A stretch of DNA of 64,000 nucleotides, taken from the IMG/VR virus record IMGVR_UViG_3300012000_000001, positions 111,553 to 175,552 of that record, one strand, 5' to 3'. Shown piece by piece: positions 40,208 through 57,913 of this stretch. Both the position numbers and the translations under genes were made by a program. The notes under the pieces are model-generated. The model did no database searches. It saw nothing but the letters and a program-made list of their open reading frames with translations, and was not told the DNA's origin. Numbering within the stretch: position 1 is the first letter of the stretch; the number at the start of each line of letters is the position of its first letter. The stretch comes from a virus.

Positions 40208-41136
40208 AATACGGGATTGATAATACCATAGCCCTCAAATTTTCTAATTCCTTTATATCTAGAATCTTTTAGAGATATAGTATTTTGCTTGAAAGCATCA
40301 ATATAGTCTTCAAATGTATTTAGTTTATATTTTTTGTGTTTAAGATTATAACTTAGTAATAATGCAGCACAACCAACAGCAAACGGATTGCTCATACTTG
40401 TGCCGCTCATGCTTGCATATCTATTTCCTGGCACACATCCGATAATATCATGACCCGGAGCCAGAAAGTCCAGATCTTCACCACTGCAAGTAAAAGATGT
40501 GCGATTTAAATTTTCGTCTATAGCCCCAATAGATATAGTATTTTTATATTTAGCAGGGTACATTATCTCAGAGTTTTCTCCACTGTTCCCAGCCGCACAA
40601 AAAACTATACAACCTTTACTATTAGCATAGCTAATTGCGTTTTCTATAGACTTGGCTGGATTTGGAGAACCTAAACTCATAGTAATAAAATTTACTCCAT
40701 CATAGTCAGCCGCCCAATAAATTGCATCAGCTACGGCACTCATAGATCCAGATCCATCATCTCCCAGAGCTTTTACTGGTACGATTTTTGCAGCGGGTGC
40801 CACACCAACCATTCCGAATCCATTATCTGATGCTGCTATTGTGGATGATACGTGAGTACCGTGACCCGCACCGTCTATTGGGTCTCTTCCACTATTAACA
40901 AAGTTTTTACCGGGTAATAAATTATCTACCAAGTCTTTGTGCTTAAGGTCGCAGCCAGTGTCTATTACTGCCACGATAACCCCATCACCCTTACTTTTAC
41001 TCCATAATTTTGGAATATTAAATTTCTTTAATTCCCATCCTTCTGATTGAGAATCGTCAACAGATAAACCATATACATCTTCTTTAATATATGGTAATAA
41101 GCTAATATTGTCTTTATTAAATCTTTTTCTTATCAT
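40204..41136 (-). CDS. Subtilisin-like serine protease without signal peptide
   Basis: A 310-residue S8 peptidase; I start it at 41136 because AAGGA lies 6 bases upstream and the ATG overlaps the previous stop. Catalytic residues are Asp59 (VIDTGCD), His92 (GHGTHVSS), Asn183 (AAGNSGE) and Ser246 (GTSMSNP). It resembles intracellular subtilisins: short N-terminal extension, no signal. It is coupled to the trypsin-like gene, so the two proteases are probably made together. Confidence 0.88.
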   Translation of the reverse strand: MIRKRFNKDNISLLPYIKEDVYGLSVDDSQSEGWELKKFNIPKLWSKSKGDGVIVAVIDTGCDLKHKDLVDNLLPGKNFVNSGRDPIDGAGHGTHVSSTIAASDNGFGMVGVAPAAKIVPVKALGDDGSGSMSAVADAIYWAADYDGVNFITMSLGSPNPAKSIENAISYANSKGCIVFCAAGNSGENSEIMYPAKYKNTISIGAIDENLNRTSFTCSGEDLDFLAPGHDIIGCVPGNRYASMSGTSMSNPFAVGCAALLLSYNLKHKKYKLNTFEDYIDAFKQNTISLKDSRYKGIRKFEGYGIINPVF

Positions 41137-41888
41137 TTTGATTCCTTGATAGTAGAAATGGTGTTTGTAATCCATTCAACATGATCACTAATTCTGGTAT
41201 GGCCACTAAATGTTCCATAGGCCGATTTTATCATCCCCTTGTCATGTATAACACAAGAGTTTATGCCTGCTAGTTTATTTCCGATAAATAAGCCGCCCCC
41301 GCTATCACCACTAGCAATACAATATTCTAATTCTGTTCTGTTTGTTCTAGAAGGGGAACACACCAACAATCCCCTATCTATAGAGTCTATAGTATTAGAA
41401 CCGGCTCTTAGTTTATCGTCCAGTTTATTAACGCCCACCAAAAAATTTCCAGTAGCGCCATATCCAGCTATGGAACATATTTTTCCTACCTCGTTTTTAT
41501 TGGTATATAATTCAGGATACCATTCCAAACCTATATCGTCTTCTAAAATGCATATAGCAATATCATAATATCCAAATTGGTCCATTTTATAATTAGGATG
41601 GACTATGATTTTTGATACATTAATTGTTTTGCTATTGATAGTCGCTCTACAGGTTCCCACATCTTGCACAATATGCGCGGCTGTTATTATAACATTAGAT
41701 TGGTGTGCTATTCCAGAACCAAAATAAGGCTTGGTATCAGGAGTGGTACCATGCACTTTAGCAATATATACAAATTTTGATCCGTACTCTATATGCTTAG
41801 AGTCTGGGGTATTGGGGTCTATCGTGCCCGAAAAACCTACGACACAAGCCAACGACAACGCTATAAATATAACTACTTTTTGTATCAT
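41133..41888 (-). CDS. Trypsin-like serine protease, exported
   Basis: A 251-residue S1-type protease with a signal peptide (VVIFIALSLACVVGFSG). Catalytic His72 (TAAHIVQ), Asp109 (YYDIAIC) and Ser196 (SGDSGGGLF) are in place. Mature cysteines could form disulfides. It would act outside the cytoplasm or in the virion. A GGTGTA motif lies 45 bases upstream of the start. Confidence 0.85.
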   Translation of the reverse strand: MIQKVVIFIALSLACVVGFSGTIDPNTPDSKHIEYGSKFVYIAKVHGTTPDTKPYFGSGIAHQSNVIITAAHIVQDVGTCRATINSKTINVSKIIVHPNYKMDQFGYYDIAICILEDDIGLEWYPELYTNKNEVGKICSIAGYGATGNFLVGVNKLDDKLRAGSNTIDSIDRGLLVCSPSRTNRTELEYCIASGDSGGGLFIGNKLAGINSCVIHDKGMIKSAYGTFSGHTRISDHVEWITNTISTIKESK

Positions 41889-42192
41889 TTTGAACTTTTA
41901 AGTTATATGGTCTATTTCGTACCTTAGTATAATACACCCTTGCATCATCAACAACTGTTGTATTCCAACTAGTATAGTCCATCAAGTGACCAAATACTAA
42001 ATGACACTTGGTACACAAAGTAATTAAATTTGCGGGATCTAATTCTCTTTCTGGATTTATATGAAACGGCTCTATATGATGAACCTCTAGTTTTTGTGAC
42101 GTTCCGCACGCAGCGCACAGTGGTTGTTGTTCAAGATGTTTTTTTCTACACGATGACCATTGAGATGATCTATCAGATAATATTTGCCACAT
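41797..42192 (-). CDS. HNH endonuclease
   Basis: A 131-residue protein with a standard HNH core: CAACGTSQKLEVHHIEPFH (about 27-45) and NLITLCTKCHLVFGH (about 55-70). The natural end is probably near RNRP; the last 30 residues overlap the protease gene and look like out-of-frame sequence. Free-standing HNH genes are common in phages. Confidence 0.75.
   Translation of the reverse strand: MWQILSDRSSQWSSCRKKHLEQQPLCAACGTSQKLEVHHIEPFHINPERELDPANLITLCTKCHLVFGHLMDYTSWNTTVVDDARVYYTKVRNRPYNLKVQNDTKSSYIYSVVVGLCRRFFGHDRPQYPRL
41927..41938 (-). promoter_or_regulatory. GGTGTA-type putative phage promoter (protease pair)
   Basis: Minus strand GGTGTATTATAC, 45 bases before the trypsin-like ATG, inside the HNH frame. 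Confidence 0.45.
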
Positions 42193-42198
42193 ATGACC

Positions 42199-42342
42199 TT
42201 AACCACCCCCTCCGCCGCCTCCGCTCAGTATGGTTCTGCTTGGTGTTATAGTAACAGTTGGAGTAACTGTTGGTGTTGGGGTCACACTAGTAAGGGGTTT
42301 TTGAGTAGGTACTGGACAGCAATTAATATTAATTATAGTCAT
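42199..42342 (-). CDS. Small Thr/Pro- and Gly-rich protein
   Basis: A 47-residue ORF starting with AAAAGG upstream of ATG at 42342. It has CCPVPTQ, a Thr-Pro repeat like those of the two large proteins upstream, and ends in seven glycines. The poly-Gly tail recalls short phage virion proteins. It is probably part of the same surface-protein unit. Confidence 0.5.
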   Translation of the reverse strand: MTIININCCPVPTQKPLTSVTPTPTVTPTVTITPSRTILSGGGGGGG

Positions 42343-42366
42343 TATAATACCTTTTATTTATAAATT

Positions 42367-43863
42367 TCAAATGATTGAAGGGATAGGTGTTGGCGTGGGA
42401 GTTGGTGTAGGTGTTGGTGATGGCGAAATTGCAGTAGCATTATTATTACATAATTTTACAACCACATTATCTATAGCCGCCCCAACAACGCCACAATCCG
42501 TACAGGTGCTTTCAAATTTTACAAGTGTAATCGTACTATCTGCTGTAAAAACAAGAGTTTTAGTAACCCAGCCCATAGACTCATATGTTCCAAATGTAGT
42601 AGACGATGGATCGAAAGAATAATCTTTTGTAATTGTTGACGAACCAATAATCGATAATCTGCATGTTTTTACGATATTTTTTTCTGTAATATTATGTGCA
42701 GCCAAATTAAAAGTTACTGAATATGTGCTTCCAATAATTGTATTAATACTTTGTTGAATATATCCTGCACTTAAAGCATTCAAATCTATCCATTTATTAA
42801 CAGGCTGAGTATCATCATATTGTGAAAGTGAATGAATATCCACATTAGATATAGTCCAATAATCTAATGCCCCAACTGGGGATGTTCCAACATCTGGAGC
42901 AGATCCTGGCGTTCCAGACTCAAAATCTCCATTTAAAACCAAATTGGTTGAACCCTCATCATCAATACAAACACAAACATTAAAATGTCCAGTATTATCT
43001 TGAGGCTGCGGATCATAAAAGAATAAATATAGTTTGCCTGTTTCGTTTGCTATAGCACTATAAGATGATCCAACAAAAAATACCGTACCAGATTCACCAA
43101 TACGGCCAAGCAAACTAACATAAGGAAATCCAGAAAGTGGATCATTGCCTGTTCCTGGTATTCCATCAGGACCATATGCTCCAGGATGATCTGACCATCC
43201 TACATTAATATTGCCATCAGCCGATATTGTTAATAGAGATCCAGCATTTACTTGTATATTTGTATTTAGTGCATTGGCTGAACTATTATGAGTAGGTCCT
43301 AAAACTTTGGGAGAAGGACATATAAAACCACCAACGACAATATCGTTAGGCATACAAAGGGCTAACACTATATTATTAGCTGGATCTTTGATCGTAACTC
43401 TTCCGATGCCGTTATGGCAATCTGATAAATTACATTCTAGTCGTAATGTAGTAGACTGACTGCTAAGAATATGTTCATTAATTGTAAATACTGTTTCTCT
43501 ATACCTCCCATCAGGAAAATTATTTAAATTTGCTTCGCCTATCAAATTGTTGTCAATATAAAAATTAAAAATAGCCCTATTACATGAGTGACCAGCAGAA
43601 CAATTGACCGGATCATATGATACAATTGCGGTGTATCCATACAGATCAACACCTTCCCCTAAACAAATATCTGGCACTGGCGTAGGAGGTGGTGGGGGTG
43701 GGGGCGGTAATGGAATATCTATGATATTAGATTTGTCACAACAGCCGCTGCCTCCAATACGCAACTGAATACTAGAAGCCCTAGATCCTCCTGGAGACAA
43801 TATACTACCAGGAACATATAATTTAATTATTTTTTTGTCGCAATTAATTAGGGGAGTTGTCAT
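42367..43863 (-). CDS. Surface lectin-like protein (LecA-like plus DUF642-like)
   Basis: A 498-residue protein; ATG at 43863 overlaps the previous stop (ATGA). After a Pro-rich linker come a beta-sandwich domain (about 60-180), a PA-IL/LecA-like galactose-binding domain ([20 protein letters not shown] with a later GKLYLFFYD, about 205-290) and a DUF642/choice-of-anchor-like carbohydrate-binding domain ([14 protein letters not shown] to [10 protein letters not shown], about 305-475). The tail is Pro-Thr repeats. It probably binds host or self glycans as part of a fibre or decoration. Confidence 0.68.
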
Positions 43864-45890
43864 GGTATTATATCTCCAAAACACGTTGAATTAATAGAAT
43901 ATGAATATCCCGGATTAACTGTGTCGCAATCTATAGCAGATACTGGTAGTGGGTTCCATGAATTACTATTATTTAATGAATATTCAATAGAACAACAACA
44001 TTCGCTATTCTTCTCTACCTGCAATTCTACAATTATACCATTATTAATAAGAGCGCCGTCAATAAATCCATCACAAATTATAATTTCATTACACGACTCC
44101 CAGCAGTACTCCTCCGTAAAACTAGACCAAGCACTATCTAATGCAGACTCTTGGCAATAGTTTAAAGAAATAGTTTTGATTCTAAATTTAACATAGCCGT
44201 TGGAACATTCTTGAGAGGCTGCTATATTGTCTGGTCTAGGTCCCAATAGACTTGTTAAAGAAAAATTGTATGAATTAATAAGAGTATTGAATATACAAAC
44301 CTGATCTAATAATTGTCCATTATGGTCTACCGCTTGAATCATATAGCCTGTAGCGCAGCTTTGATTATTTGGAGAAGATAATCCTGACCATGACCAATTC
44401 AAAGAGACTAATGTATCATTTGCGCCAGCCACCCCATCATCAAAACACGCACAACCAGATTCTACAATAGTAGGAGGAGATAACTGACAATTCACAGACG
44501 GTGTTGGTGTTGGTGTGCTTGAAGGTGACGGTGTGCAACAATTACAATTATTGGTATCTCCATCAAATACCCATACTGGAGGCACATCACACTGACAAGC
44601 AGTAGATGTTCCTGAAATATTTAGACCATTAACACAAGATATATTGGCGGTAGCTGTCCATTTATTAGCGCATGATGATGATCCCGTATATGGTACGCTG
44701 GGATCACATGTTACTGCCATAAAATATGTGTCGCCACATGATAATGTTCCACTACTAGTCCAATAATTAGGCATGACTTTAGTGAAGAATAAATCTAATG
44801 TTATCGTTCTACTCATATTACTACAGTTTAATACAAATGTAGTCAAACCATTCCAATCACAACATGTTCTGGGCGAAATAGATGGTGTTGGAGTACTAGT
44901 GGCAGTTGGTGTTGGTTTAGGAGTTTGGGTTTTAGTTACTGTGGGTGTTGGACTAGATGTTGGTGTTGGAGTACAGCAACTACAATTAGAAAAATCTGCA
45001 ATAAAACTCCAAATAGGAGGAGCATTACACTGACATACTTCTCTAACCCCTGTAATTATTAAGCCAGTAGCGCATGACATTGTGAGTGAAAAAGACCACT
45101 TATTGATACACGAGTTTGCTCCAGCGTATCTAATATCTGGATTACAAGTTATTGTAGACGTAAAAGTGTCTCCACAATTTAATGTCCCGTTTGCAGTCCA
45201 TGTAGATGGTCCCGTCTTTGTATACTGCACTGGTAATATTAAATTATTACAGGTTTCTCCAAACTGAATAAATGTATTACCATCCCATTCACAACAAGTT
45301 TGTCTCGACGGGGTAGGTGTTATAGTTGCTGTTGGCGTTGCTGTTGGAGTTATTGTATTTGTCGGAGTGGTTGTTGGTGTGGATGTTTTGGTTGGGGTGA
45401 TAGTATTTGTTGGAGTAACAGTAATAGTTGGTGTTACTGTTGGTGTTTTTGTTTGTGTAGGAGTTACAGTTGGTGTTTGAGTCTTAGTAGCAGTTATGCT
45501 TGGTGTTGGAGTTGGTGTTCTTGTACTAGTAACTGTCATTGTTGGAGTGACAGTAGGAGTACTAGTTATGGTCGGTGTGACAGTAGGAGTTCTAGTTACT
45601 GTTGGGGTTTGTGTTTTTGTAGGTGTTCTAGTTGGTGTTCTTGTAGGGGTTTTTGTAGGGGTTTTAGTTATAGTCGGAGTTATTGATGGAGTGATTGTAG
45701 GAGTAGGTGTAGGTGTTTTTTTAGGAGTTTTAGTAGGTGTAGGCGTTTTGGTTAAAGTTCTAGTTGGTGTAGGAGTGACCAAAGAACGATCAATTATAAT
45801 ACATGTTTCATCCGACCTAATTTTAGGCGGTTTAGGCGTAGGACTTGGTGTTCTTGTGGGTGTTGGAGATGGAGGTATTATCTTTGACAT
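43860..45890 (-). CDS. Thr/Pro-repeat, cysteine-rich surface protein
   Basis: A 676-residue protein. Residues ~1-200 are almost pure Pro-Thr repeats. Two ~105-residue cysteine-rich domains follow (RQTCCEWDG... and PRTCCDWNG..., about 200-310 and 340-450), each ending CQC.(A/V)PP.W and NC.CC; they are clear tandem duplicates. A third part (about 465-600) looks like a fibronectin-type fold. No signal peptide. The Cys count is high for a phage protein. A tail-fibre or head-fibre role is likely. Confidence 0.6.
45306..45870. repeat. Degenerate 6-bp Thr-Pro-encoding repeat tract
   Basis: The plus strand is built of GGTGTT/GGAGTT-like hexamers that encode Thr-Pro on the minus strand. Shorter tracts of the same kind occur at about 44490-44535, 44885-44970, 42385-42425 and 42245-42295. 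Plus-strand open frames here are shadows. Confidence 0.8.
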
Positions 45891-45908
45891 ATTATAATCT
45901 GTTCTAAC

Positions 45909-46910
45909 TTAAAGCACTTTAGCGGCAATAAGACATCCTTTAGATACAGCGTGCAATGGATCCGCAGCATGTTTAAATTCTTTAATTGGTAATGGAAACT
46001 CATTATCAATTAATTTTTGTTTAAAATATTCAATATATCCTTTGGCTTGAGATGTTCCTCCCGCCACAACAATCGTCAATGGTTCTTTAAATTTGGGAAG
46101 AGACTTATGATTACTTAATGCTGATGATAACTGTTTAGTAGTATAGTCTATTAATCTATCATAATAAGAAGCAACTGCTGCTAATATAGGGTTGTCATTA
46201 TGTTCACCCACAGAAAAGTTTCCGCCCTCTTTTTCTGCTTGTACAACACTGTCCGGCTCTCCTGTAGCAACTGCACTCATTCTATCAACCCAGTCTCCAG
46301 ATTTAGTTGTTGAAAATACAACAGTTGGCTCACCGTTTAACATAACGCACACATTAGTCATTCCCGCCCCACAACTGATGCCTATGCCAGTATAATCGTT
46401 ATCATCTAATTCAGCATAACACAGAGCCTCTGCTTCATTAACAGACCTAGCAGAATACCCACAACTATTTAAAATGGTTTTTACAACATCTTCATGATAG
46501 CTGACATCAAAGTCTTCATCTTCTTGGTCTACTGGTTGTGCAGGTACGCAGAATACTATTTTTTCATTAGGCTCAGATGCTTGTCCGACTACTTCCTTTA
46601 AAATAAAAGCGAGCACTCTTTTTGCATCTTTTTCTTTGGCAGAAACTACGCCCTTAAACATTGGTCTTTTTGCCGTGTCATTTCTTTCGATGGCTTTTTC
46701 TATGGCGTCTTGACCTAAAATAATAAATGAACCGTCTGTGTCTTTTATAAAAGTTTTACCAGTCAATCCTTTTTCTATCATCTTTGTTGCAACTGGTGTT
46801 GAGGGCTTAATAATATAAAAAGCGTCTCTGAAATCTTTATATTGCACTTTATCATTATTGTCTTCTGATAATACTATAAAGCTTGTTCCTACGTCAAGAC
46901 CCTTTGCCAT
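45909..46910 (-). CDS. Actin-like ATPase (ParM/MreB/Hsp70 superfamily)
   Basis: A 333-residue protein with actin-fold motifs: phosphate-1 AKGLDVGTSFIVLS (2-15), phosphate-2 YTGIGISCGAGMTNVCVML (about 170-190) and the adenosine motif TIVVAGGTSQAKGYIEYF (about 275-293). Length and the lack of Hsp70 substrate domain fit ParM/Alp-type filament proteins, used for DNA segregation or positioning. A small membrane protein gene lies directly upstream. GAGG precedes the ATG. Confidence 0.78.
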   Translation of the reverse strand: MAKGLDVGTSFIVLSEDNNDKVQYKDFRDAFYIIKPSTPVATKMIEKGLTGKTFIKDTDGSFIILGQDAIEKAIERNDTAKRPMFKGVVSAKEKDAKRVLAFILKEVVGQASEPNEKIVFCVPAQPVDQEDEDFDVSYHEDVVKTILNSCGYSARSVNEAEALCYAELDDNDYTGIGISCGAGMTNVCVMLNGEPTVVFSTTKSGDWVDRMSAVATGEPDSVVQAEKEGGNFSVGEHNDNPILAAVASYYDRLIDYTTKQLSSALSNHKSLPKFKEPLTIVVAGGTSQAKGYIEYFKQKLIDNEFPLPIKEFKHAADPLHAVSKGCLIAAKVL

Positions 46911-46913
46911 AAT

Positions 46914-47231
46914 TTACCTCTTTAAATTTTGTAATTTATTAACAGACAAAGAAATATTCTCATCTGTTTGCTGAACTTTTCCAAATTCTTGGTATTTTTT
47001 TTCGATCCCATCTGTGTTAATATCCGTAACAAATTTTCTATCGTCTATAATAATTTTATTTTGTGGTTGTTCATTATTAGTATGGTTCTTATTATTTTTA
47101 ATAACTGACTGGGCCCCAAAAATAGTCTGACTATTACTAGTATGCAGTCTGCCAATGATATAGCCAATACCACAACTAATAATATTTAATACGGTCAAAA
47201 TTATGATCAAAATATATATCATTTCAGACAT
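46914..47231 (-). CDS. Small membrane protein upstream of the actin-like gene
   Basis: A 105-residue protein with one membrane segment (about 4-26, IYILIIILTVLNIISCGIGY) and a polar tail with NKIIIDDRKFVTD. AGGAGG precedes the ATG. Its position three bases before the actin-like gene suggests an anchor or adaptor; this is inferred from position only. Confidence 0.55.
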   Translation of the reverse strand: MSEMIYILIIILTVLNIISCGIGYIIGRLHTSNSQTIFGAQSVIKNNKNHTNNEQPQNKIIIDDRKFVTDINTDGIEKKYQEFGKVQQTDENISLSVNKLQNLKR

Positions 47232-47249
47232 AAGCCTACAGCCTCCTAC

Positions 47250-47261
47250 CAGATTTACACC
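47250..47261 (-). promoter_or_regulatory. GGTGTA-type putative phage promoter (actin-like unit)
   Basis: Minus strand GGTGTAAATCTG, just after the terminator at 47274-47297 and 25 bases before the ATG at 47231. Confidence 0.55.
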
Positions 47262-47273
47262 ATAGACTAAAAG

Positions 47274-47297
47274 AAAAAAGGAGCGATTACTCGCTCC
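47274..47297 (-). terminator. Rho-independent terminator after ruvB
   Basis: Minus strand GGAGCGA (47297-47291), loop GTAA, TCGCTCC (47286-47280) and six T residues (47279-47274). Confidence 0.88.
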
Positions 47298-47337
47298 TTA
47301 GCTTAAATAAATGTCGTGTAATGAAGAAAGAAATGGT

Positions 47338-48228
47338 CTAGATAGAGCCTATAACCCTGCCCTTTTGGGTTCTTACAACATACCCTTTACGCACTAGAAA
47401 TGGCTCAATACTATTTTCAATAGTGTCTAAAGCAATCCCGGTCATTGCCGAAATAGACTTTAGACCCAAAGGATTGCCCTTGCTCCGCTTTAGTGCATCA
47501 ATATACATTCTATCATATAGATCAAGACCCTTACCGTCGATACCTTGGATCGTAAAAATCTCATCAACAGTAGCATCTGCCGTATGACAAGCCATATAGT
47601 TTTTGTACCAGGCCAGTCTAGCATTTAAGATTCTTGGTGTGCCTTTGCTTCTTTTAGCAATCTCCAACAGATCATCGTCTGTAATATCAATACCTAGCTT
47701 AGTGGCGATCAATCTTGCTACTTTAGCTAGATCATCATCACTATAAAAAGACAAATGCTCCTTAATTGTAAAACGATCATAAAATGGCTGACTTAAACTA
47801 CCACCGCTTGTTGTTGCGCCAATGAGCGTAAACATTGGTAGATCAATATGTTCTGGTTCATCTTCCATAGTAATATGCAGAACAAAGTCTTCCATAATCG
47901 GATATAGAAATTCTTCAACAATTTTTGGAAGTCTATGAATTTCATCAATAAACAATACCGACCGTGCAGTAACACCCATAATATATGGTAGAATACTTTT
48001 TACATTACGAATGTTTGCAGCATTGAGCGTTCGCAGATCAACACCCATTTCATTCGCTATAGCACTGGCTATGGTTGTTTTACCAAGCCCAGGAGGCCCA
48101 TCAATTAAAACATGCGGCAATACACCACCAGACATTTTACAGCCTGTGGCTGAAATTCGCAGCCTATCGATAACGTCTTTTTGTCCGATAATTTCATCAA
48201 AAGTGGTTGGTCGTGAAATATTAGCCAT
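47338..48228 (-). CDS. ruvB: RuvB-like branch-migration helicase
   Basis: A 296-residue AAA+ ATPase: RPTTFDEIIGQKDVIDRL (6-23), Walker A GPPGLGKTT (44-52), Walker B VLFIDEIHR (about 90-98), the TSGGSLSQPFYDRF sensor/arginine block (about 140-153) and a C-terminal winged helix (GLKSISAMTGIALDTIENS). It is about 40 residues shorter than bacterial RuvB (about 335). It would drive Holliday-junction branch migration. No RuvA or RuvC is seen, but the preceding gene may substitute for part of RuvA. Confidence 0.9.
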   Translation of the reverse strand: MANISRPTTFDEIIGQKDVIDRLRISATGCKMSGGVLPHVLIDGPPGLGKTTIASAIANEMGVDLRTLNAANIRNVKSILPYIMGVTARSVLFIDEIHRLPKIVEEFLYPIMEDFVLHITMEDEPEHIDLPMFTLIGATTSGGSLSQPFYDRFTIKEHLSFYSDDDLAKVARLIATKLGIDITDDDLLEIAKRSKGTPRILNARLAWYKNYMACHTADATVDEIFTIQGIDGKGLDLYDRMYIDALKRSKGNPLGLKSISAMTGIALDTIENSIEPFLVRKGYVVRTQKGRVIGSI

Positions 48229-48231
48229 GAT

Positions 48232-48633
48232 TTACATTCCTCCAAAAATTTTCATTGCGTCTTTTACCAAAATTACAGGATCATTACATTCCGTTATGTT
48301 ATGAACCTTGTTTATAAGATCAACTGCTTCTTGTTTTGAGAAGCCATAATGTTCTAATATTTTGTATGCCCTATTTAAGTATTGTGGACTAGAATCTGAT
48401 TGTTTTTCTGTTGTCGGTATGGCAATTGGTTGGCTTTTTTTAGCGTAAATAGATTTAATATTTTCTATACGACGTATTCTATATATATTACCACAATCGC
48501 ATACCCATTTAAAGTTCTTAACCTGTACTTGATTCAAGAAGAGCCAATGCTCTGCTTCGCACTCTGTGTTAGTGCATTTATATTTAAACTGTGCATCTAG
48601 ACTAATCGGTTTCAGGCTTTTCTGTTTTGTCAT
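48232..48633 (-). CDS. Zinc-finger protein with RuvA-domain-III-like C-terminus
   Basis: A 133-residue protein ending 4 bases before ruvB. The N-terminus has CTNTEC and CDC cysteines, a probable zinc site (about 20-48). The C-terminal ~50 residues (YLNRAYKILEHYGFSKQEAV, then LINKVHNI ... LVKDAMKIF) match the pattern of RuvA domain III, the helical part that grips RuvB. The similarity is by pattern and modest. AAAGGA precedes the ATG. Confidence 0.6.
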   Translation of the reverse strand: MTKQKSLKPISLDAQFKYKCTNTECEAEHWLFLNQVQVKNFKWVCDCGNIYRIRRIENIKSIYAKKSQPIAIPTTEKQSDSSPQYLNRAYKILEHYGFSKQEAVDLINKVHNITECNDPVILVKDAMKIFGGM

Positions 48634-49033
48634 TTTGTTCCTTTAACCAAAAAATAAAATCGCCAACCTCGGCATCATACCCACTCTCCAGTATACCCTT
48701 GTTGACCAGATGATGCAAGATGTTGCTAACCATTCTAGAATTTAATGCCTCAATTATAGTATACAAGATTTCATCATTAATATAGTATTTAACCATTTCA
48801 TTTGGTTTGCGTTTTTGTTTTGTGTGTTCCTGTACTATTAGTAATGATTCATTGTATGGTAATGCTTGTTCCATTTCTTCTAATTCTTCGTTAGATATAT
48901 TGTATAATGTAGAATCTAATAGGTGAGCTGGTTTAACATCAGTATTTTCCTCTCCAAAAAAACGAAATACTAGTTTTCTAGCACTATTTACAAAATCTTC
49001 TATATTATTAATTTCATACCATGATTTGCTCAT
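48602..49033 (-). CDS. Conserved phage protein with DNA-binding-like domain
   Basis: A 143-residue protein: an N-terminal helical region with ARKLVFRFFGEE, a middle NEMVKYYINDEILYTIIEAL and a winged-helix-like end (SRMVSNILHHLVNKGILESG, then FIFWLKEQ). It may regulate or load other proteins. It overlaps the zinc-finger gene by 32 bases. Confidence 0.55.
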   Translation of the reverse strand: MSKSWYEINNIEDFVNSARKLVFRFFGEENTDVKPAHLLDSTLYNISNEELEEMEQALPYNESLLIVQEHTKQKRKPNEMVKYYINDEILYTIIEALNSRMVSNILHHLVNKGILESGYDAEVGDFIFWLKEQNDKTEKPETD

Positions 49034-49043
49034 TTTTATACTA

Positions 49044-49475
49044 TTAATTCAATATGTCGAATAGCCCCTTATAGTATGTTGGTTGTCTTAAAAAGTGTGT
49101 AGCATGAGTTTGAATATGCTTTTTATACATTTGATCTATCGGATTAGAAACAAAATATTTATATTTCCAAACTTCAGAACCTTGATAGTTATTCCCCAAA
49201 TACTGGAAAGCATTACCTTTACCAGTACTGGAGAAGTAACTATTCACAGGAAACGACATATCTTTATTTGAACCAAAAAACCCAGTCTTTGGTGAAATAT
49301 ACCATACATTTGAGGTATATTCAACTATATCATTTAGAGCATCTTGTAGCCATTTACCCCAAGTATCCCAAGCATTAGGATCAAACTTGAAGTAATGTTT
49401 ATACTTGTTCTCTAAATCATCCTGACTATCATCATAGTCATGATCATCATCATAGTTGTCATATTCTTCGTGCAT
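49044..49475 (-). CDS. Hypothetical acidic protein
   Basis: A 143-residue protein. The first ~20 residues are Asp/Tyr-rich; the rest has many aromatic residues (WDTWGKWLQDALN, WYISPKTGFFG, FLRQPTYYKGLF). No family recognised. Confidence 0.5.
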   Translation of the reverse strand: MHEEYDNYDDDHDYDDSQDDLENKYKHYFKFDPNAWDTWGKWLQDALNDIVEYTSNVWYISPKTGFFGSNKDMSFPVNSYFSSTGKGNAFQYLGNNYQGSEVWKYKYFVSNPIDQMYKKHIQTHATHFLRQPTYYKGLFDILN

Positions 49476-49480
49476 AGAAT

Positions 49481-49732
49481 TTACCTATAAAATCTATTTT
49501 GAGGAACTCCATTACGGGGACGACCTCTATTACCTTTAAATCCTAGTCTCCTTATTATATTTCTAATAGTCTGCCCACTAAGGTAATACTTTTTACCATA
49601 GAAGGAGTTTTCTTCAAAATAATAGTAAAGACTTTTTGCCGACCCTAATTCACCCATTAGTTCAATAAACTTTTTCTTTGCTTCTTCATTAGTCAATAAA
49701 AACTGCAAAAGAGGATTAGTGTGTCTACCCAT
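49481..49732 (-). CDS. Small HTH-like DNA-binding protein
   Basis: An 83-residue basic protein. The middle (ELGSAKSLYYYFEENSFYG, SGQTIRNIIRRLGFKGN) reads as a helix-turn-helix, followed by an Arg/Gly tail (RGRPRNG) like an AT-hook. AAGGAG precedes the ATG. Confidence 0.55.
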   Translation of the reverse strand: MGRHTNPLLQFLLTNEEAKKKFIELMGELGSAKSLYYYFEENSFYGKKYYLSGQTIRNIIRRLGFKGNRGRPRNGVPQNRFYR

Positions 49733-49753
49733 TTGTTTTCTCCTTATATGGTT

Positions 49754-49790
49754 GTGTCAAAGGGTATAGATGATTCCATACCCCTGACAC
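49754..49790 (-). other. Strong hairpin between the primase-like and HTH genes
   Basis: A two-part stem: GTGTCA/TGACAC outside and GGGTAT/ATACCC inside, with a 10-base loop. It has no T-tract. It could be an mRNA processing or attenuation element, or a weak terminator. Confidence 0.55.
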
Positions 49791-49797
49791 AGAACCC

Positions 49798-50961
49798 TCA
49801 TCCAATACAAAACTTATCACTAATTTGAGAAGCAAGGTCTTTAGCAGCATTAGAGAGGAATCTGTTGTTACTAAAGTAGAGCGGTGTTGAGACTTGATTA
49901 AGGAACTCCACGACCGTCTTTAAAAGTTTGGTCTGCTGACCATCAAGGCTCATATCCTCGTCAGGCAGAGCATCCTGTACATCCATAGACCCATCCCCAT
50001 CGTCTACGAGCGTATCATCGTCAACCGGATGAACTGGCATAGGATCACCATAAGCCTTTTGACCATAGCGACCAGAAGCATATCCATATACAGCTTTAGT
50101 AGCTAGATCTTCCGTACTATTGGTATATGTTTCAGGATTTAAAGCCCTCATCTGATTCAGAATGTTCGTTGCAACATTAACTGATACTGGAACTCCGGTG
50201 GTATCAGACTGCTTATAAGCCTTAGCATAACCCTTATACCATTCATCACTGCACTTCTCAGGAATAATCTGGAGAGTAGCAGGTTGACCAGTAAGAGCAG
50301 ACTTTAGATCAGCAACATTAATTGGTTGACCAGTGCTACCGGGAAGCAGACTCGTAAAATAAGGAGCCTTCTTCTCCCACTCCTTACGCCACCAAGTATA
50401 AGGAACACGATAAATCTGATTTGGCTTGATAGCTCGCGGATCACCACCAAAGTAGTTTACCAGTTTTTTCTGTAAGCCATTCCAGAAAGTCTTGTTCGAT
50501 CCAACAATATTTCTTGAAGCATCATCGAAAATCCAGTAACACTGATAACCATTACGAGTATCAACTACCCAGCTAGGCTTAACAGGAAACTCATTGATCT
50601 TCTTAAGAAACTTTTTCTTGTGCTGCATAACAACGCTGGGCTTAAAATAAGTACCATCAGCATTTCTGCCAGCATCCATATCACAGAAACAGCAAGTAAA
50701 TTGCTTGATAGCATAAAGCTTGCGACCACCATTTACATAGAAGTAAGCATCAGAATGATTATTTACATTAGCATCAAGCGTCTCATTAAGATCATTAGTA
50801 TGATTCATACTACTAATCTTCTTACGAGGATTACCATTATAAACGAAAATGTTGCTTTGATTAAAAGAACCAAGAAATGCAGACCTCTCATGTGCATACT
50901 TATTTGCATAGACATTATTGTTCTTATCAAACGGGTTGAAACCAAGATTATCGTTAAACAT
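49798..50961 (-). CDS. Primase-polymerase-like replication protein
   Basis: A 387-residue protein; I start it at 50961 (MFNDNLG) with AAGGA 6 bases upstream; a GTG at 50979 is in frame. The segment CCFCDMDAGRNADG (about 89-102), PSWVVDTRNGYQCYWIFDD (about 130-148), and PNQIYRVPYTWWRKEW (about 186) follow the order of archaeo-eukaryotic primase/RepB-type domains, where acidic residues and a histidine or Gln pair bind metal and nucleotide. The C-terminal third is acidic and disordered. It is upstream of nothing else of replication in the window, but is next to rIIAB. Confidence 0.6.
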   Translation of the reverse strand: MFNDNLGFNPFDKNNNVYANKYAHERSAFLGSFNQSNIFVYNGNPRKKISSMNHTNDLNETLDANVNNHSDAYFYVNGGRKLYAIKQFTCCFCDMDAGRNADGTYFKPSVVMQHKKKFLKKINEFPVKPSWVVDTRNGYQCYWIFDDASRNIVGSNKTFWNGLQKKLVNYFGGDPRAIKPNQIYRVPYTWWRKEWEKKAPYFTSLLPGSTGQPINVADLKSALTGQPATLQIIPEKCSDEWYKGYAKAYKQSDTTGVPVSVNVATNILNQMRALNPETYTNSTEDLATKAVYGYASGRYGQKAYGDPMPVHPVDDDTLVDDGDGSMDVQDALPDEDMSLDGQQTKLLKTVVEFLNQVSTPLYFSNNRFLSNAAKDLASQISDKFCIG

Positions 50962-51043
50962 ATTTTTTCCTTTTCCCACTACTTACTACCTACACAAATG
51001 ATATTGGGACAGTAAACACTACCATCAAAAGCAATATCTAAAA

Positions 51044-51123
51044 GATGGTGTTGGAATCGAACCAACCTATAACTAGTATCCGCCCAGCGGCCCACCTTCA
51101 TCCTAGTGCCTATTGCTAGGCAC
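51044..51123 (-). other. tRNA-like fragment with hairpin, unassigned RNA
   Basis: On the minus strand a perfect T-arm (GTTGG TTCGATT CCAAC, 51066-51050) lies 40 bases after a perfect 7-bp hairpin (GTGCCTA/TAGGCAC, 51123-51106). I cannot fold a complete tRNA: the acceptor partner, D-arm and anticodon loop are not found. It lies in the 153-base gap after rIIB. It may be a decayed tRNA or a structured leader for the primase-like gene. Confidence 0.35.
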
Positions 51124-51133
51124 AAATCCTCAA

Positions 51134-51982
51134 TCAATAATCTTGATCTGGATCGTATTCCTCATCTTCATCTTCATATTGATCCCAGTAAGCATCGTCA
51201 TACTCATCATAAAGATCTTCTTCCTCATCATAGTATTCATCTTCATTGAATTCACTCTTATAAAGAGGCTTAAGCAATTCTCCTTGATATTCACCAACTA
51301 CCTCATACTTACAAGTACGAAGTTTTTCATGGTTACAATCGCTTGGAACACTAACAACATCTTTTGGATGAATCTTAACAATCACAATACGATCACCAGC
51401 ATCAGCATTGCCATAACCAGCAACGTAGTTCAATGCACCAGCATGAAGTCCTTGTGAACAACCGACCGAACGATTGTCATCCACTTTTGCCCTTTGCATT
51501 TCGCAAATCTTGCCAACATGATTGTCAAACTTACCAGCATACTTATCCATATAGTCTGACCTAACAGCCTTATACGCAAGGAAACAACCATCCTCAGTAA
51601 TCGGAAGCAGTTCATGCTCCAAGAAATCATACAGTTCCTTTTGACTCTGCATACTTGGATTTTCCATAAGATTATTCAGGAAATTAACAAGAGGCTGAAA
51701 CGGCAGTCCCTTGCTCATAAACTCCAGAATACGCTTACTGATACTACCATGAACTTCTTCATTTTGATAATAAACCTTACCATTCTTAACCTCTACCAGA
51801 CCATCACTAAAATTAGAAACAGCCTTCTCAATATCAACCAGTTCTGCCAATTCATCATTTGTGGCAGTTGGAAGAGCCTCAAGAATCAGTCTGTAATTAA
51901 TATGATCTGGAAGAACCTGATGCGCCTTATTATTAATAATCAGCGTCAAGTTACCATCAACCCACATAAAAGGAACACTCAT
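51134..51982 (-). CDS. rIIB: rIIB-like protein
   Basis: A 282-residue homologue of T4 rIIB. The conserved central part is FLEHELLPITEDGCFLAYKA (about 120-139), then MQRAKVDDNRSVGCSQGLHA (about 162-181) and IVKIHPKDVVSVPSD (about 200-214). The C-terminus is very acidic (EDEDEEYDPDQD). In T4 the rII proteins affect lysis inhibition and survival of lambda RexAB exclusion; biochemical role unknown. It follows rIIA by 25 bases; AGGAGA precedes the ATG. Confidence 0.85.
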   Translation of the reverse strand: MSVPFMWVDGNLTLIINNKAHQVLPDHINYRLILEALPTATNDELAELVDIEKAVSNFSDGLVEVKNGKVYYQNEEVHGSISKRILEFMSKGLPFQPLVNFLNNLMENPSMQSQKELYDFLEHELLPITEDGCFLAYKAVRSDYMDKYAGKFDNHVGKICEMQRAKVDDNRSVGCSQGLHAGALNYVAGYGNADAGDRIVIVKIHPKDVVSVPSDCNHEKLRTCKYEVVGEYQGELLKPLYKSEFNEDEYYDEEEDLYDEYDDAYWDQYEDEDEEYDPDQDY

Positions 51983-52007
51983 TTTAAATCTCCTATATCC
52001 TGTGAAA

Positions 52008-54677
52008 TTAAATCAAATTACCCAAAGTTTGTCTAAACGTAACCACACCTGCCTCACCACCCAAATTTGTATACCAATCACCCTTGCTTCGATAAGAATC
52101 ATCAAAAGTCTTCAAAGGATTACTACTAGAGATTCTTCTGATGTTCCCGTCGTTTGCGTTGCTACCAACAATATACTTGAGTATCGGACTCTTGTCAACC
52201 TCGACTTTAAGAGTTTTTCTGATATCGGACATTTTTGGCAAATTGTCTACGACAGAACCTACTGTACTAGTCTTATTAAGACTTTCGGTAATTGGATTAG
52301 TATTCTGTTCATCATCATAAAGATTATTTAGCGTTGAGTTCATAGAATTTAGAGAAATATGACTTTCTCTAATCTTGTCTGGATCGATACCATTAAGATT
52401 ATATCTCGCAAGAATAGTCGCTATTTTTGCAAAATACTCGTCTTTATTCAGTCTTGGAATATCGAAAGTTACTCTATGAATTGTTACGGCAAAAAACTCA
52501 ATGAGTAGCCATTGATCTATTGTTTCACACATAACCTTATTAGAGATATACTTATCGTAATCCAAGCCGAACAAATTAATAATATGATACATAATCTGAC
52601 TATCTGATGATGCTGTACTGTAGTAGTAGTTGTCCGACCTGCCTTCCTTACTACCATATTGTGTACCACAGTACTCTATAATATTCTTATAGATAGATAC
52701 TTGGTCATTAAGCTTATTTAGCATTTTTGTAGCACACTTTTGAAACCAGTCATTGAAAGATACCAGATTGACCCCATCCTTTTTGAGTTTTTCAACAGCA
52801 TTTTGCTTGATTGCAAAAATCTTTTGATCATTAAAAAGTTTAGTTCCAAGAACCGTCTTATCGTTTTGAGCCAAGGAAACAATTTTATTAATCTTAGGAT
52901 ATCCTGCAACAGAGCCGTATCTAAGAATCGGGACATAAATGATTTCATTCTCTTCGTCTTCAATATAGGACATTAGATCGTCTGACAACTCATTAAGCAA
53001 ATAGGAGTCATTGATATCATTACCACCAAGTGCTTTGCACTCTTTGTCGGCACCAAGATTCTTGATGGCAAAGATTTCATCCTTACTAATGGTTCCAGAA
53101 GAACCCCTACTCTTACGAGTACCAGTAGAGAGCAGACTACGATAGGTAGAAACATTAACTACGTTAGTTTCTCCACCAATATGCTTGATAAGATTTTCAA
53201 AACCTTCAGTAGAATCCTCTGGAGTATCGCTATCAATCATTAGATATGCAAAACAATCATTTTGATTGCAATACTTTGTGACAATCTTTTTTGCTGTTTC
53301 TGCACCCTTAACATCACATCTGAAAAATACCATTTTACCGGACTTCTTTTCTGAAGACCAATAATATGCTGGTTTACCCTGTAGTGTTTCATGATGAATC
53401 TTATCGGTAAGATAAATCATTCTGCGAGAACGATATCCTGCGGTTCTCCAGTTAAAGACATACAACTGCTTATTTTTCTTGAACTTATATTCAAGATCCT
53501 TACCACTACTCAATTCATGGACAATACCATCTGGATCGGTCCACGATGCACCGGCAGTCCATCCTCCAGCAAGATCACTCAGATTATAATATGTGGTATA
53601 TGCATCAACAAGATTTGTGCAAGACTCAAGTTTCTTACTCATGTCTTCCTTAAGAGAAAGATAAATATGCTGAGTTTTTTCCTTGAGAGTCTTTATGACT
53701 TGCTTAGTATATTGCAAACCTTCTCTTGAAACATCCATTTCCAATTCACCAATACCGAAATGAATTTCAAGATATAGGCCGGACCCCAAAATCTCTCTGA
53801 CTAGATGCTTCCAGTTATCAACATCGGCTTTCTTAAATGCACGATTCCATCTCTGGATATTATCATTATCGATATCTTTTTCTTCTCCAACAATCTTATT
53901 AGCATCGATGGGATATGCAATATTACCCATGATAGCCACAAGTCCGCTACCGGGGCCATTATAAGCACTTGGGTACTGATTATTATTACTAGATACTCTA
54001 CCAATACGCCAACCCTCACCATCAATAACAACATTGGTATGAGAGTAGGAGTGATCAGAAATACTATCGTCAGTACCACCATCAATAATCGGCTTCATCT
54101 TAAAATAGTGGAAAATGCGCTTACTCTTGATGGTAAACTCATGAAAATCATGTTGCTTAACAGCGAAACTAATCTCCAAACCGTTTGGTTCAGACGTATC
54201 GGTAATACCAAACAGATTCAGACTAGGCACACCACTTTCATCCATAGCAGCAATATAAGAATACTTTTTGCCATTATGATACGATGTCGTACTAAAACTC
54301 TTTGTATAAGCAAATGGACTCTTGCTCCCCAAGCCCAAACATCCGACAAAATCATTGCTATCATTTTTATTGGATGCACCATACGTTGTATACAGTTCTT
54401 CCATATCTTTTTGGCTAAGACCGGTGCCATAATCACGCACAGTAAAAGACGGGGAAGCCTGAGTAGGCAGACTAATCTTAAAAGGATTTTTGTTACCGGC
54501 AGCGATATGAGCATCATAAGCATTAGTAGAAAGCTCACGAATAACTGCCATTACCTTATCAGAGTACAAAGAATCTGAAAGGATCTTAAACATTTTGCTT
54601 GTTTGAGCAATAGTAAACTGATTTGTGCTATCCAAACCGCGACTGTGAATCTCAACCGTTCTATCTGCCAACTTCAT
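52008..54677 (-). CDS. rIIA: rIIA-like GHKL ATPase
   Basis: An 889-residue protein. The GHKL ATP-binding site is clear: N-box IRELSTNAYDAH (46-57, Glu48 and Asn52), G1 box RDYGTGLS (81-88) and G2 box GCLGLGSKSPFAY (112-124). The fold is shared with Hsp90 and topoisomerase VI. The rest is long and family-specific. It is driven by the most perfect sigma70 promoter in the window and has a hairpin in its leader. It pairs with rIIB. Confidence 0.88.
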   Translation of the reverse strand: MKLADRTVEIHSRGLDSTNQFTIAQTSKMFKILSDSLYSDKVMAVIRELSTNAYDAHIAAGNKNPFKISLPTQASPSFTVRDYGTGLSQKDMEELYTTYGASNKNDSNDFVGCLGLGSKSPFAYTKSFSTTSYHNGKKYSYIAAMDESGVPSLNLFGITDTSEPNGLEISFAVKQHDFHEFTIKSKRIFHYFKMKPIIDGGTDDSISDHSYSHTNVVIDGEGWRIGRVSSNNNQYPSAYNGPGSGLVAIMGNIAYPIDANKIVGEEKDIDNDNIQRWNRAFKKADVDNWKHLVREILGSGLYLEIHFGIGELEMDVSREGLQYTKQVIKTLKEKTQHIYLSLKEDMSKKLESCTNLVDAYTTYYNLSDLAGGWTAGASWTDPDGIVHELSSGKDLEYKFKKNKQLYVFNWRTAGYRSRRMIYLTDKIHHETLQGKPAYYWSSEKKSGKMVFFRCDVKGAETAKKIVTKYCNQNDCFAYLMIDSDTPEDSTEGFENLIKHIGGETNVVNVSTYRSLLSTGTRKSRGSSGTISKDEIFAIKNLGADKECKALGGNDINDSYLLNELSDDLMSYIEDEENEIIYVPILRYGSVAGYPKINKIVSLAQNDKTVLGTKLFNDQKIFAIKQNAVEKLKKDGVNLVSFNDWFQKCATKMLNKLNDQVSIYKNIIEYCGTQYGSKEGRSDNYYYSTASSDSQIMYHIINLFGLDYDKYISNKVMCETIDQWLLIEFFAVTIHRVTFDIPRLNKDEYFAKIATILARYNLNGIDPDKIRESHISLNSMNSTLNNLYDDEQNTNPITESLNKTSTVGSVVDNLPKMSDIRKTLKVEVDKSPILKYIVGSNANDGNIRRISSSNPLKTFDDSYRSKGDWYTNLGGEAGVVTFRQTLGNLI

Positions 54678-54691
54678 TATTCTTCTCCAAA

Positions 54692-54719
54692 AGTGTCGTT
54701 ATCGAACCTGTGATGTTCG
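54692..54719 (-). promoter_or_regulatory. Leader hairpin element before rIIA
   Basis: CGAAC/GTTCG stem (54719-54703) with the adjoining 17-base element (54708-54692) that matches 14 of 17 bases of the element at 58456-58472, in front of another sigma70-promoter gene. Confidence 0.4.
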
Positions 54720-54720
54720 T

Positions 54721-54749
54721 ATTATAACATCGGCAATCAGTGCTGTCAA
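54721..54749 (-). promoter_or_regulatory. Consensus sigma70 promoter for rIIA-rIIB
   Basis: Minus strand TTGACA (54749-54744), 17-base spacer, TATAAT (54726-54721). A perfect match to the bacterial consensus, so probably used early by host polymerase. Confidence 0.88.
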
Positions 54750-54752
54750 GCC

Positions 54753-54989
54753 TTAATTATTTTTCTCAACTGTCGTTATGGCAACATAGCCACAATAGAT
54801 GGGTATCAATCCTATATACCATACCGGAATTCCTATTGAACAAAACCAGATACCCGAAATAAAAGATATAGTAGATAATATATAAACTATAATTTTTGGA
54901 AATTTTATTTTTGCTAGTATAATTGTTATCGGACCAATCAAAATAATAAATATCAGAATGATAGATACTAATAAAGCTAAACTAGCCAT
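54753..54989 (-). CDS. Small integral membrane protein
   Basis: A 78-residue protein with three hydrophobic segments (about 3-27, 31-52 and 55-72). No family recognised. The stop is followed within a few bases by the rIIA promoter. It abuts the coiled-coil gene by one base. Confidence 0.5.
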   Translation of the reverse strand: MASLALLVSIILIFIILIGPITIILAKIKFPKIIVYILSTISFISGIWFCSIGIPVWYIGLIPIYCGYVAITTVEKNN

Positions 54990-55288
54990 TATTCATCATC
55001 CGAGTCATAATTATCATATTCTTCCGGCTCGTAATCTTCGTCGTAAGGACTCCATTCTGTATTATATTTTTCTTGTTCTTCATCCTGATATTCTTCTAGT
55101 ATTTCGGCAGCATCCATGATAACTTCTAGTTGTTGAATCTTTTCTATCAATAGACTCATTTTAGCGTCTAAACTTTTTATTGCTTTTTTGATATCTCCAA
55201 TATCTTTTGATAGATGACTGTCTACTCTATGAATTTCTTGATTGGATTTTGCGATTTGCTTTAGAATATTATCAAAATCTTTTGACAT
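54989..55288 (-). CDS. Coiled-coil protein with acidic tail
   Basis: A 99-residue protein. Residues ~1-60 form a coiled coil (SNQEIHRVDSHLSKDIGDIK and AKMSLLIEKIQQLE); the last 35 residues are almost all Asp, Glu and Tyr. Function unknown. Confidence 0.5.
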   Translation of the reverse strand: MSKDFDNILKQIAKSNQEIHRVDSHLSKDIGDIKKAIKSLDAKMSLLIEKIQQLEVIMDAAEILEEYQDEEQEKYNTEWSPYDEDYEPEEYDNYDSDDE

Positions 55289-55300
55289 CCATTGTACCCA

Positions 55301-55621
55301 TTATAATTTTTTGTATTCTTTGATATCTCCGTTTTCAGCAATTTTCTTATCTTCATACTGACTACCAACACGACGATAAAATTCTTGCTTTATATTCTCT
55401 AATACACCAGTTATCATAGCAATTTTACTGTATGATACCGGCATCATTAACTGCCCTAAAATACGACTAAAAGTATAGTTAATATCCCCTACTATTTGTA
55501 GGAATTCTTCATTTGAGAGAGTAGATGTTGAGTCCTTATTCAAGTTAGACTTTAAGCATACCACCATATCCTCTATACAGTTGTCTAAATTTTGTCGATT
55601 ATCTTCACTAATATATGGCAT
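55301..55621 (-). CDS. Hypothetical helical protein
   Basis: A 106-residue protein, started at 55621 (MPYISEDNRQNLDN) because GAGG lies 6 bases upstream. A longer frame to 55696 runs into the kinase-like gene. Helical, with FSRILGQLMMPVSYSKIAM. Function unknown. Confidence 0.55.
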   Translation of the reverse strand: MPYISEDNRQNLDNCIEDMVVCLKSNLNKDSTSTLSNEEFLQIVGDINYTFSRILGQLMMPVSYSKIAMITGVLENIKQEFYRRVGSQYEDKKIAENGDIKEYKKL

Positions 55622-55622
55622 T

Positions 55623-56150: not shown

Positions 56151-56152
56151 GA

Positions 56153-56470
56153 TTAATATGATATAATTTGAGGGATTTCCCCGGTAATATTATACAAGAA
56201 TTCTTTGGCCTTATCTAAGGAGTAGAACTCTCCTAAAAAGATAACTGAATATCTATCATCGTATTCATATCTCTTGCCATATATTTGGTAGAATGGCTCA
56301 TCAAGAGCCTCTTCTTCTGTATCTAGAAATTGTTCGGCACTTTTAATTTGGTCTATAAATGTACCGCCTTCGTAATCTGGAAATTCTCTTACAGTTACTA
56401 GTTCAAAATATTCTATCGGAGATTTTGGATTAGTATTTCTAATCAAACCATTACACAGAGTATTAGTCAT
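56153..56470 (-). CDS. Hypothetical acidic protein
   Basis: A 105-residue protein: YFELVTVREFPDYEGG, YGKRYEYDDRYSVIFLGEFY, then DKAKEFLYNITGE. No family recognised. The C-terminal part looks like a small alpha-beta domain. Overlaps its neighbour by 8 bases. Confidence 0.5.
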   Translation of the reverse strand: MTNTLCNGLIRNTNPKSPIEYFELVTVREFPDYEGGTFIDQIKSAEQFLDTEEEALDEPFYQIYGKRYEYDDRYSVIFLGEFYSLDKAKEFLYNITGEIPQIISY

Positions 56471-57206: not shown

Positions 57207-57217
57207 ATATTTCCTTA

Positions 57218-57885: not shown

Positions 57886-57913
57886 CTTTCCATCTCCTGA
57901 ATGTAGTCTAATT

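What the first reader, a model, noticed from the sequence alone, without database searches (positions are those of the whole stretch)
47338..48633. RuvB without RuvA, but with a zinc protein whose end resembles RuvA domain III
The gene directly before ruvB encodes a Cys4-type N-terminus and a helical C-terminus with the pattern A..IL...GFS..EAV.LI.KV...LVKDAMK, as in RuvA domain III that binds RuvB. The DNA-binding RuvA domains are missing. This could be a phage loader that brings RuvB to a different DNA or protein target.
Basis: partly seen in the sequence, partly recalled or inferred. Interest (0 to 1): 0.66.

Follow-up and report, generated by a model that had tools for sequence, protein, structure and literature searches.

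The report
Phage RuvB motor with non-RuvA adaptor
Large environmental phages carry the bacterial DNA motor RuvB without its usual guide RuvA, and encode beside it a small zinc protein that keeps only RuvA's motor-gripping domain, which suggests the motor is steered to something other than an ordinary Holliday junction.

Summary
A 133-residue protein ends 3 bp before a complete RuvB gene. It has an invariant four-cysteine zinc-ribbon module and a C-terminal three-helix domain homologous to RuvA domain III (D3): best PDB profile hits 1ixs/1ixr, HHalign against RuvA E=6.6e-8, and AlphaFold/Foldseek matches to RuvA D3 at 1.2-1.4 A. RuvA domain I (RuvA_N) and RuvC were not found in 18 related phage records. 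The pair recurs in hundreds of IMG/VR loci (291 loci with a full-length RuvB and the partner, 52 with RuvB alone; some contigs counted more than once). Every partner locus with enough sequence has RuvB directly downstream. In lineages that lack the partner, RuvB's motor motifs stay conserved, but alpha3 and, more weakly, the presensor-1 hairpin lose conservation. These are the two elements that bind RuvA D3 in bacteria (0 of 1000 phylogeny-matched draws). This is strong indirect evidence that the partner grips this RuvB at the canonical RuvA site. Best reading: a RuvB adaptor and ATPase modulator in which a basic zinc ribbon replaces RuvA's junction-binding domains. The target of the zinc ribbon is unknown, and the predicted complex could not be examined here. 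It is a new variant of a known system (RuvAB).

The parts
48232..48633 (-). Partner gene, 133 aa: N-terminal zinc ribbon, linker, C-terminal RuvA-D3-like domain
48454..48633 (-). Zinc-ribbon module (residues 1-60): C20-x4-C25 ... C45-x-C47 invariant; strongly basic (mean net charge +7.5)
48235..48390 (-). RuvA-domain-III-like three-helix domain (residues 82-133); L93 and Y96 correspond to E. coli RuvA L167 and L170
47338..48228 (-). RuvB (296 aa), complete AAA+ motor with lid and winged helix
47977..48003 (-). RuvB alpha3 (residues 76-84), part of the canonical RuvA-D3 binding site; relaxed in partner-less lineages
47839..47880 (-). RuvB presensor-1 beta-hairpin (residues 117-130), 4 residues shorter than in bacteria; I119 is the column with the largest loss of conservation in partner-less lineages in the first set
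47356..47373 (-). RuvB C-terminal DNA-binding wing RTQKGR (residues 286-291), conserved
48602..49033 (-). Gene X, 143 aa, unknown family, always directly upstream; overlaps the partner gene by 32 nt
49044..49475 (-). Gene Y, 143 aa, unknown family, conserved C-terminus PxYYKGLFDILN, upstream of X
49798..50979 (-). Gene V, 393 aa, conserved upstream neighbour (weak PHROG hits, no Pfam hit)
46914..47231 (-). Gene U, 105 aa, conserved downstream neighbour
45909..46910 (-). Volactin-family actin, conserved downstream neighbour of the cluster

Best explanation
The 133-residue protein is a 'mini-RuvA': a RuvB adaptor that keeps only RuvA's RuvB-binding domain III and carries a basic zinc ribbon where RuvA has its junction-binding and tetramerising domains I and II. 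Its D3 docks on the alpha3 plus presensor-1-hairpin surface of the phage RuvB. Shown here: homology to D3, co-conservation of the pair, and relaxation of exactly that RuvB surface when the partner is missing. By analogy with bacterial D3 it would tether RuvB and speed its nucleotide cycle (inferred). The zinc ribbon would deliver or anchor the intact dsDNA-translocating RuvB ring to a target other than a RuvA-bound four-way junction, most likely a DNA intermediate or protein of the phage's own recombination and replication machinery, which includes a RecA/UvsX-like recombinase, DnaB helicase, a split DnaE polymerase and a PD-(D/E)XK nuclease (inferred; target unknown). The adaptor is modulatory, because RuvB keeps its full motor without it in some lineages.
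For: (1) D3 homology from four directions: PDB profile, Pfam RuvA_C in 9 of 43 members, AlphaFold plus Foldseek, HHalign E=6.6e-8 covering exactly D3 to the C-terminus. (2) Positions of RuvA L167 and L170, whose alanine mutants abolish RuvB function (PMC2628435), are hydrophobic in all 43 relatives. (3) Linkage: the partner always lies directly upstream of RuvB, the slot that ruvA holds in E. coli. (4) Interface relaxation: with no partner, alpha3 and hairpin lose conservation relative to the rest of RuvB, 0/1000 phylogeny-grouped null draws and 0/2000 with one row per lineage; in a larger set alpha3 0/1000 and combined interface 0/1000; catalytic and DNA-contact motifs unchanged. The D3 site is defined by PMC9477746. 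(5) RuvA_N and RuvC not found in 18 records.
Against: No physical contact was shown: the fusion model gave pTM 0.64 and no coordinates or PAE. The hairpin part of the relaxation signal is weaker in the larger set (5/1000; 51/1000 with one row per lineage), and the four newly found partner-less lineages on their own (5 sequences) show no relaxation. The hairpin is 4 residues shorter than in bacteria, so the contact cannot be identical. RuvB persists without the partner in about 10-15 lineages, so it is not essential to the motor. Nothing identifies what the zinc ribbon binds. Foldseek E-values for so small a domain are not significant by themselves (0.33), although the probability is 0.99-1.0.
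Confidence: 0.74

Rival explanations
1. The partner is a host-directed decoy: its D3 occupies the host RuvB and blocks host RuvAB, while the phage RuvB works alone or does something else.
For: D3 without DNA-binding domains is what a dominant-negative RuvA would look like; bacterial RuvA and RuvB from different species can complement (PMC9477746).
Against: It is genetically tied to the phage RuvB in every case, and the D3 surface of the phage RuvB itself relaxes when the partner is lost, which a host-only target would not cause.
Confidence: 0.08
2. The phage RuvB works with host RuvA on Holliday junctions, and the zinc protein is only an accessory that competes with or assists RuvA D3.
For: RuvA itself is missing from the phage while the motor is complete; RuvA was found in all 80 genomes searched of one bacterial phylum.
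Against: If host RuvA D3 were the main user of the RuvB surface, that surface should stay constrained in partner-less lineages; it does not.
Confidence: 0.1
3. RuvB plus partner act as the phage's sliding-clamp loader (an analogue of T4 gp44/gp62), since no other clamp-loader-like ATPase is found.
For: Best PHROG hits of the RuvB are clamp loaders; it is the only clamp-loader-family match in each of ten large records.
Against: It has the RuvB-specific lid, winged helix and RTxxGR DNA wing rather than a clamp-loader collar; no beta clamp found in ten records; the partner carries RuvA D3.
Confidence: 0.04
4. The three-helix domain is only a generic UBA-like bundle that resembles RuvA D3 by convergence, and the protein is an unrelated zinc-ribbon regulator.
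For: Single-sequence searches do not reach RuvA for the window protein; the domain is about 50 residues.
Against: RuvA D3 is preferred over every other bundle by profile, HHalign and fold; invariant pairing with RuvB; specific relaxation of the D3 site.
Confidence: 0.04

Closest known systems
Bacterial RuvA (RuvAB branch-migration complex)
   Same: C-terminal domain III fold and sequence, position directly upstream of ruvB, and probably the same RuvB surface.
   Different: Domain I (OB, RuvA_N) and domain II (HhH) are absent; a four-cysteine zinc ribbon and linker replace them; 133 aa instead of about 200; no junction-binding or tetramer-forming parts visible.
Bacterial RuvB
   Same: All domains and motor motifs, including the Arg finger and the DNA wing RTxxGR, conserved in 123 representative phage RuvBs.
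   Different: About 37% identity to bacterial RuvB; presensor-1 hairpin 4 residues shorter; no RuvA_N or RuvC partner found in the records.
Jumbo-phage recombination gene sets (Iyer et al. 2021, PMC7824862)
   Same: Large phages with their own recombinase and junction-processing enzymes; split DNA polymerase III core also known there.
   Different: That survey reports RuvC without a RuvB-like ATPase in jumbo phages; here RuvB occurs without RuvC or RuvA.
T4 gp44/gp62 clamp loader (phrog_168)
   Same: AAA+ relative with a small partner protein.
   Different: RuvB lid, winged helix and DNA wing; partner is zinc ribbon plus RuvA D3; no clamp found.

Membership tests
RuvA | Domain III (RuvA_C) that binds RuvB | tested here: met
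   HHalign E=6.6e-8, PDB best hit 1ixs_A, Foldseek 1.2-1.4 A; below Pfam's curated cut-off for single sequences
RuvA | Domain I, OB fold (PF01330) | tested here: not met
   HHalign to RuvA covers D3 only; no PF01330 match in 18 records while 10 of 14 control genomes ring
RuvA | Domain II, HhH junction binding | tested here: not met
   Residues 1-60 fold as a zinc ribbon, followed by a disordered linker; no alignment to domain II
RuvA | Tetramer that sandwiches a Holliday junction | not testable with these tools
   needs biochemistry
RuvB | RuvB_N, RuvB lid and RuvB_C domains above Pfam cut-offs | tested here: met
   153.1, 35.8 and 62.9 bits against cut-offs 27, 27 and 24.7
RuvB | Walker A/B, sensor 1, Arg finger, sensor 2, RTxxGR DNA wing | tested here: met
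   nearly invariant in 101 partner-bearing and 22 partner-less representatives
RuvB | Presensor-1 hairpin that binds RuvA D3 | tested here: met
   Present in sequence and model (strands at RuvB 116-121 and 124-129), shortened by 4 residues
RuvB | Branch migration with RuvA | not testable with these tools
   needs biochemistry
Clamp loader (gp44/gp62) | A sliding clamp to load | tested here: not met
   No beta-clamp (PF02767) match in ten records; T4-type clamp models were not run

The most novel reading that the evidence does not exclude
A natural rewiring of RuvB: phages have detached the motor from Holliday-junction recognition and use a zinc-ribbon/D3 adaptor to run RuvB as a dsDNA translocase at another site, such as replication forks, recombination ends, or a phage protein on DNA. 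The partner-less lineages would show that the motor can be freed from D3 control altogether.
Probability: 0.45. Interest if true: 0.78.

Novelty: new variant of a known kind. Interest (0 to 1): 0.64.

Why it matters
RuvB is treated as a motor that works only under RuvA at four-way junctions. This family offers RuvB with RuvA's coupling domain but without its junction-recognition domains, and sister lineages with RuvB but no D3 at all. That makes separable, testable questions out of what D3 does (tether, nucleotide exchange) and what RuvA domains I and II do (target choice). It also gives a recurrent phage operon with unknown genes X and Y to explore, and contrasts with a survey that found no RuvB-like ATPase coupled to RuvC in jumbo phages.

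Tried and rejected
Clamp-loader reading: tested and disfavoured. Pfam hit of the partner to the T7 capsid assembly protein (E 0.0042, below cut-off, seen in 1 of 43 members): rejected as chance. Search for the partner in isolated phages: none. Of the RuvB-like records in the isolate collection I opened two, and both look like host DNA: ruvAB among housekeeping genes, and a ruvB at the end of a prophage record. Viral fold library: no convincing relative of the partner model. First fusion alignment (A2) misplaced the partner helices and was discarded; A3 was used instead, but the tool returned no contacts, so the complex test is inconclusive. Functions of X and Y by profile: no significant hit. 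Zinc-ribbon identity: only generic zinc-ribbon hits; phrog_1500 (49 positions, best E 6e-6 in one member) is an unannotated family and was not resolved. Phylogenetic sign test for single hairpin columns lacked power.

Full report
What is there. The window lies at 111553-175552 of a 197 kb virus record. On the minus strand, genes X (48602-49033), partner (48232-48633) and RuvB (47338-48228) follow one another: X overlaps the partner by 32 nt, and the partner ends 3 bp before RuvB. RuvB matches RuvB_N, the RuvB lid and RuvB_C above Pfam cut-offs and is about 37% identical to bacterial RuvB of known structure over its whole length. In 123 representative phage RuvBs, Walker A, Walker B, sensor 1, the Arg finger, sensor 2 and the DNA wing RTxxGR are nearly invariant. 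The presensor-1 hairpin is present but 4 residues shorter than in bacteria.

The partner. In 43 relatives Cys20, Cys25, Cys45 and Cys47 are invariant. The N-terminal 60 residues are basic (mean net charge +7.5) and are predicted as a small beta zinc-ribbon, joined by a disordered linker to three helices at 84-95, 100-114 and 119-130. A profile of the family against all PDB sequences gives RuvA domain III first (1ixs_A, E=2.4e-4; 1ixr_A, 0.002), and five further RuvA chains among the ten listed. RuvA_C is the Pfam family matched by most members (9 of 43, best 0.0027), although no single sequence passes the curated cut-off. Foldseek of the model puts RuvA chains, matched over D3, in the first nine ranks (probability 0.85-1.0, about 1.1-1.4 A for the cleanest alignments), with modest E-values because the domain is small. 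HHalign against a family of bacterial RuvAs (E. coli plus about 30 others) aligns only domain III, C-terminus to C-terminus, at 94.6% probability and E=6.6e-8; genes X and Y used as controls give 0.6% and 0.2%. Positions of E. coli RuvA L167 and L170, whose alanine mutants abolish RuvB activity in vivo (PMC2628435), correspond to partner L93 and Y96 and are hydrophobic in all 43 relatives. RuvA domain I (PF01330) and RuvC (PF02075) were not found in 18 phage records, while most bacterial controls ring. The records may be incomplete.

The pair. The first RuvB scan gave 80 loci; 66 of these, plus the window's own locus, had the partner by BLAST. Scanning with the partner profile instead gave loci that all have RuvB directly downstream, including the contigs cut within RuvB, which were checked by tblastn. 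Scans with X, Y and a divergent RuvB brought 343 loci with a full-length RuvB: 291 with partner and 52 without; some contigs are counted more than once. In most partner-less loci X runs straight into RuvB with 0-56 bp between, and in the rest the two genes overlap; where whole contigs were searched, no partner lies elsewhere. No X locus with more than 435 bp of sequence beyond X lacks RuvB. The order V-(Z)-Y-X-[partner]-RuvB-U-volactin is conserved. On the RuvB tree, presence of the partner changes at least 7 times on well-supported branches and 10 times on the best tree. Presence on both sides of the midpoint root suggests repeated loss (inference). In E. coli ruvA sits in the same place, directly upstream of ruvB.

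Does the partner bind RuvB? In bacteria, RuvA D3 binds a composite hydrophobic site made of RuvB alpha3 and the presensor-1 hairpin, and acts as nucleotide exchange factor and ATPase activator (PMC9477746; hairpin L135-L152 in E. coli, PMC2628435). If the partner uses this site, losing the partner should relax it. I compared column entropy in 19 partner-less and 85 partner-bearing RuvBs. I noticed the high rank of I119 before running the formal test, but the site itself was defined from the literature and from the model's secondary structure (alpha3 76-84, hairpin 117-130). The excess entropy at the site over the rest of the protein was 0.387, against a null of -0.041 +/- 0.100 from partner-bearing sequences drawn with the same clade structure: 0/1000 for the site, for alpha3 and for the hairpin. 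With one sequence per lineage it was 0/2000, 2/2000 and 2/2000. In a larger set (22 against 101 at 95% identity, 15 lineages) alpha3 remains 0/1000 and the combined site 0/1000; the hairpin alone weakens to 5/1000, and to 51/1000 with one row per lineage. Leaving out any one lineage does not abolish the signal. The four new lineages alone (5 sequences) show none, being few. Motor motifs stay fixed in both groups. I take this as strong indirect evidence for canonical docking, with alpha3 the firmer half.

The direct contact test failed for technical reasons. The stop codon between the two genes is in frame, so a read-through fusion was folded with partly paired rows. All domains are confident but pTM is 0.64, and no coordinates or PAE are returned.

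How it most likely works. The record encodes a RecA/UvsX-like recombinase, DnaB helicase, a Toprim primase, a split C-family DNA polymerase and a PD-(D/E)XK nuclease. No beta clamp was found in ten large records, and RuvB is the only clamp-loader-like ATPase there. I infer a RuvB ring acting on dsDNA in phage recombination or replication, tethered and stimulated by the D3 of the adaptor, with the zinc ribbon choosing the target. Relaxation of the D3 site in partner-less lineages also argues that these RuvBs do not depend on host RuvA. The zinc-ribbon target and the loading step are unproven.

Known or new. No partner was found among 50,697 phage records, and the one hit in 84,980 bacterial and archaeal species is a Chitinophagia MAG contig that also carries the phage RuvB, so it is probably a binned phage. 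[quoted passage not shown] I found no paper describing a RuvA-D3 adaptor without domains I and II, in a library that lacks most subscription journals. I therefore file it as a new variant of RuvAB. It is not a RuvA, because two defining domains are absent, but it probably works like RuvA's third domain.

Noticed in passing
window 45909-46910 (-): Actin-like protein of the Volactin family (PF25216, E=3.6e-64), a family named after an archaeal actin, conserved next to RuvB in about 97 related loci.
   Followed up: partly
record G000 179032-179382 (-), i.e. L089 4033-4383, outside the window: A tmRNA gene with tag GETQLALAA predicted in the phage record.
   Followed up: no
record G000 102217-106585 (-), L088: C-family DNA polymerase split into two genes (PHP plus NTPase half, finger plus HHH half) with an exonuclease gene between; no beta clamp or clamp loader found.
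   Followed up: partly
window 48602-49033 and 49044-49475 (-): Two unknown protein families (X and Y) that accompany RuvB in nearly all loci; X may be a winged helix (only insignificant MarR-type hits), Y ends in an invariant-rich PxYYKGLFDILN.
   Followed up: partly
window 43860-45890 (-): 676-aa protein with long Thr-Pro-rich repeats (TPTPTKTPT...) between cysteine-rich repeated domains.
   Followed up: no
window 51134-51982 (-): RIIB lysis-inhibitor homologue (phrog_609, 2.3e-73) in a phage otherwise far from isolated relatives.
   Followed up: no
record G000 40435-58407 (+): Single 5990-aa open reading frame, by position and size a candidate tape-measure protein.
   Followed up: no
L177 (RFVO01000059.1, Chitinophagia MAG): The only bacterial-genome contig with the partner; it also carries the start of the phage RuvB, so it may be a misbinned phage contig and a weak host hint.
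   Followed up: partly
L448 (CAKLQF020000007.1) and L449 (MK448681.1): The two 'phage' RuvB records opened look like host DNA: a ruvAB locus among housekeeping genes, and a host-like ruvB at a prophage end.
   Followed up: partly
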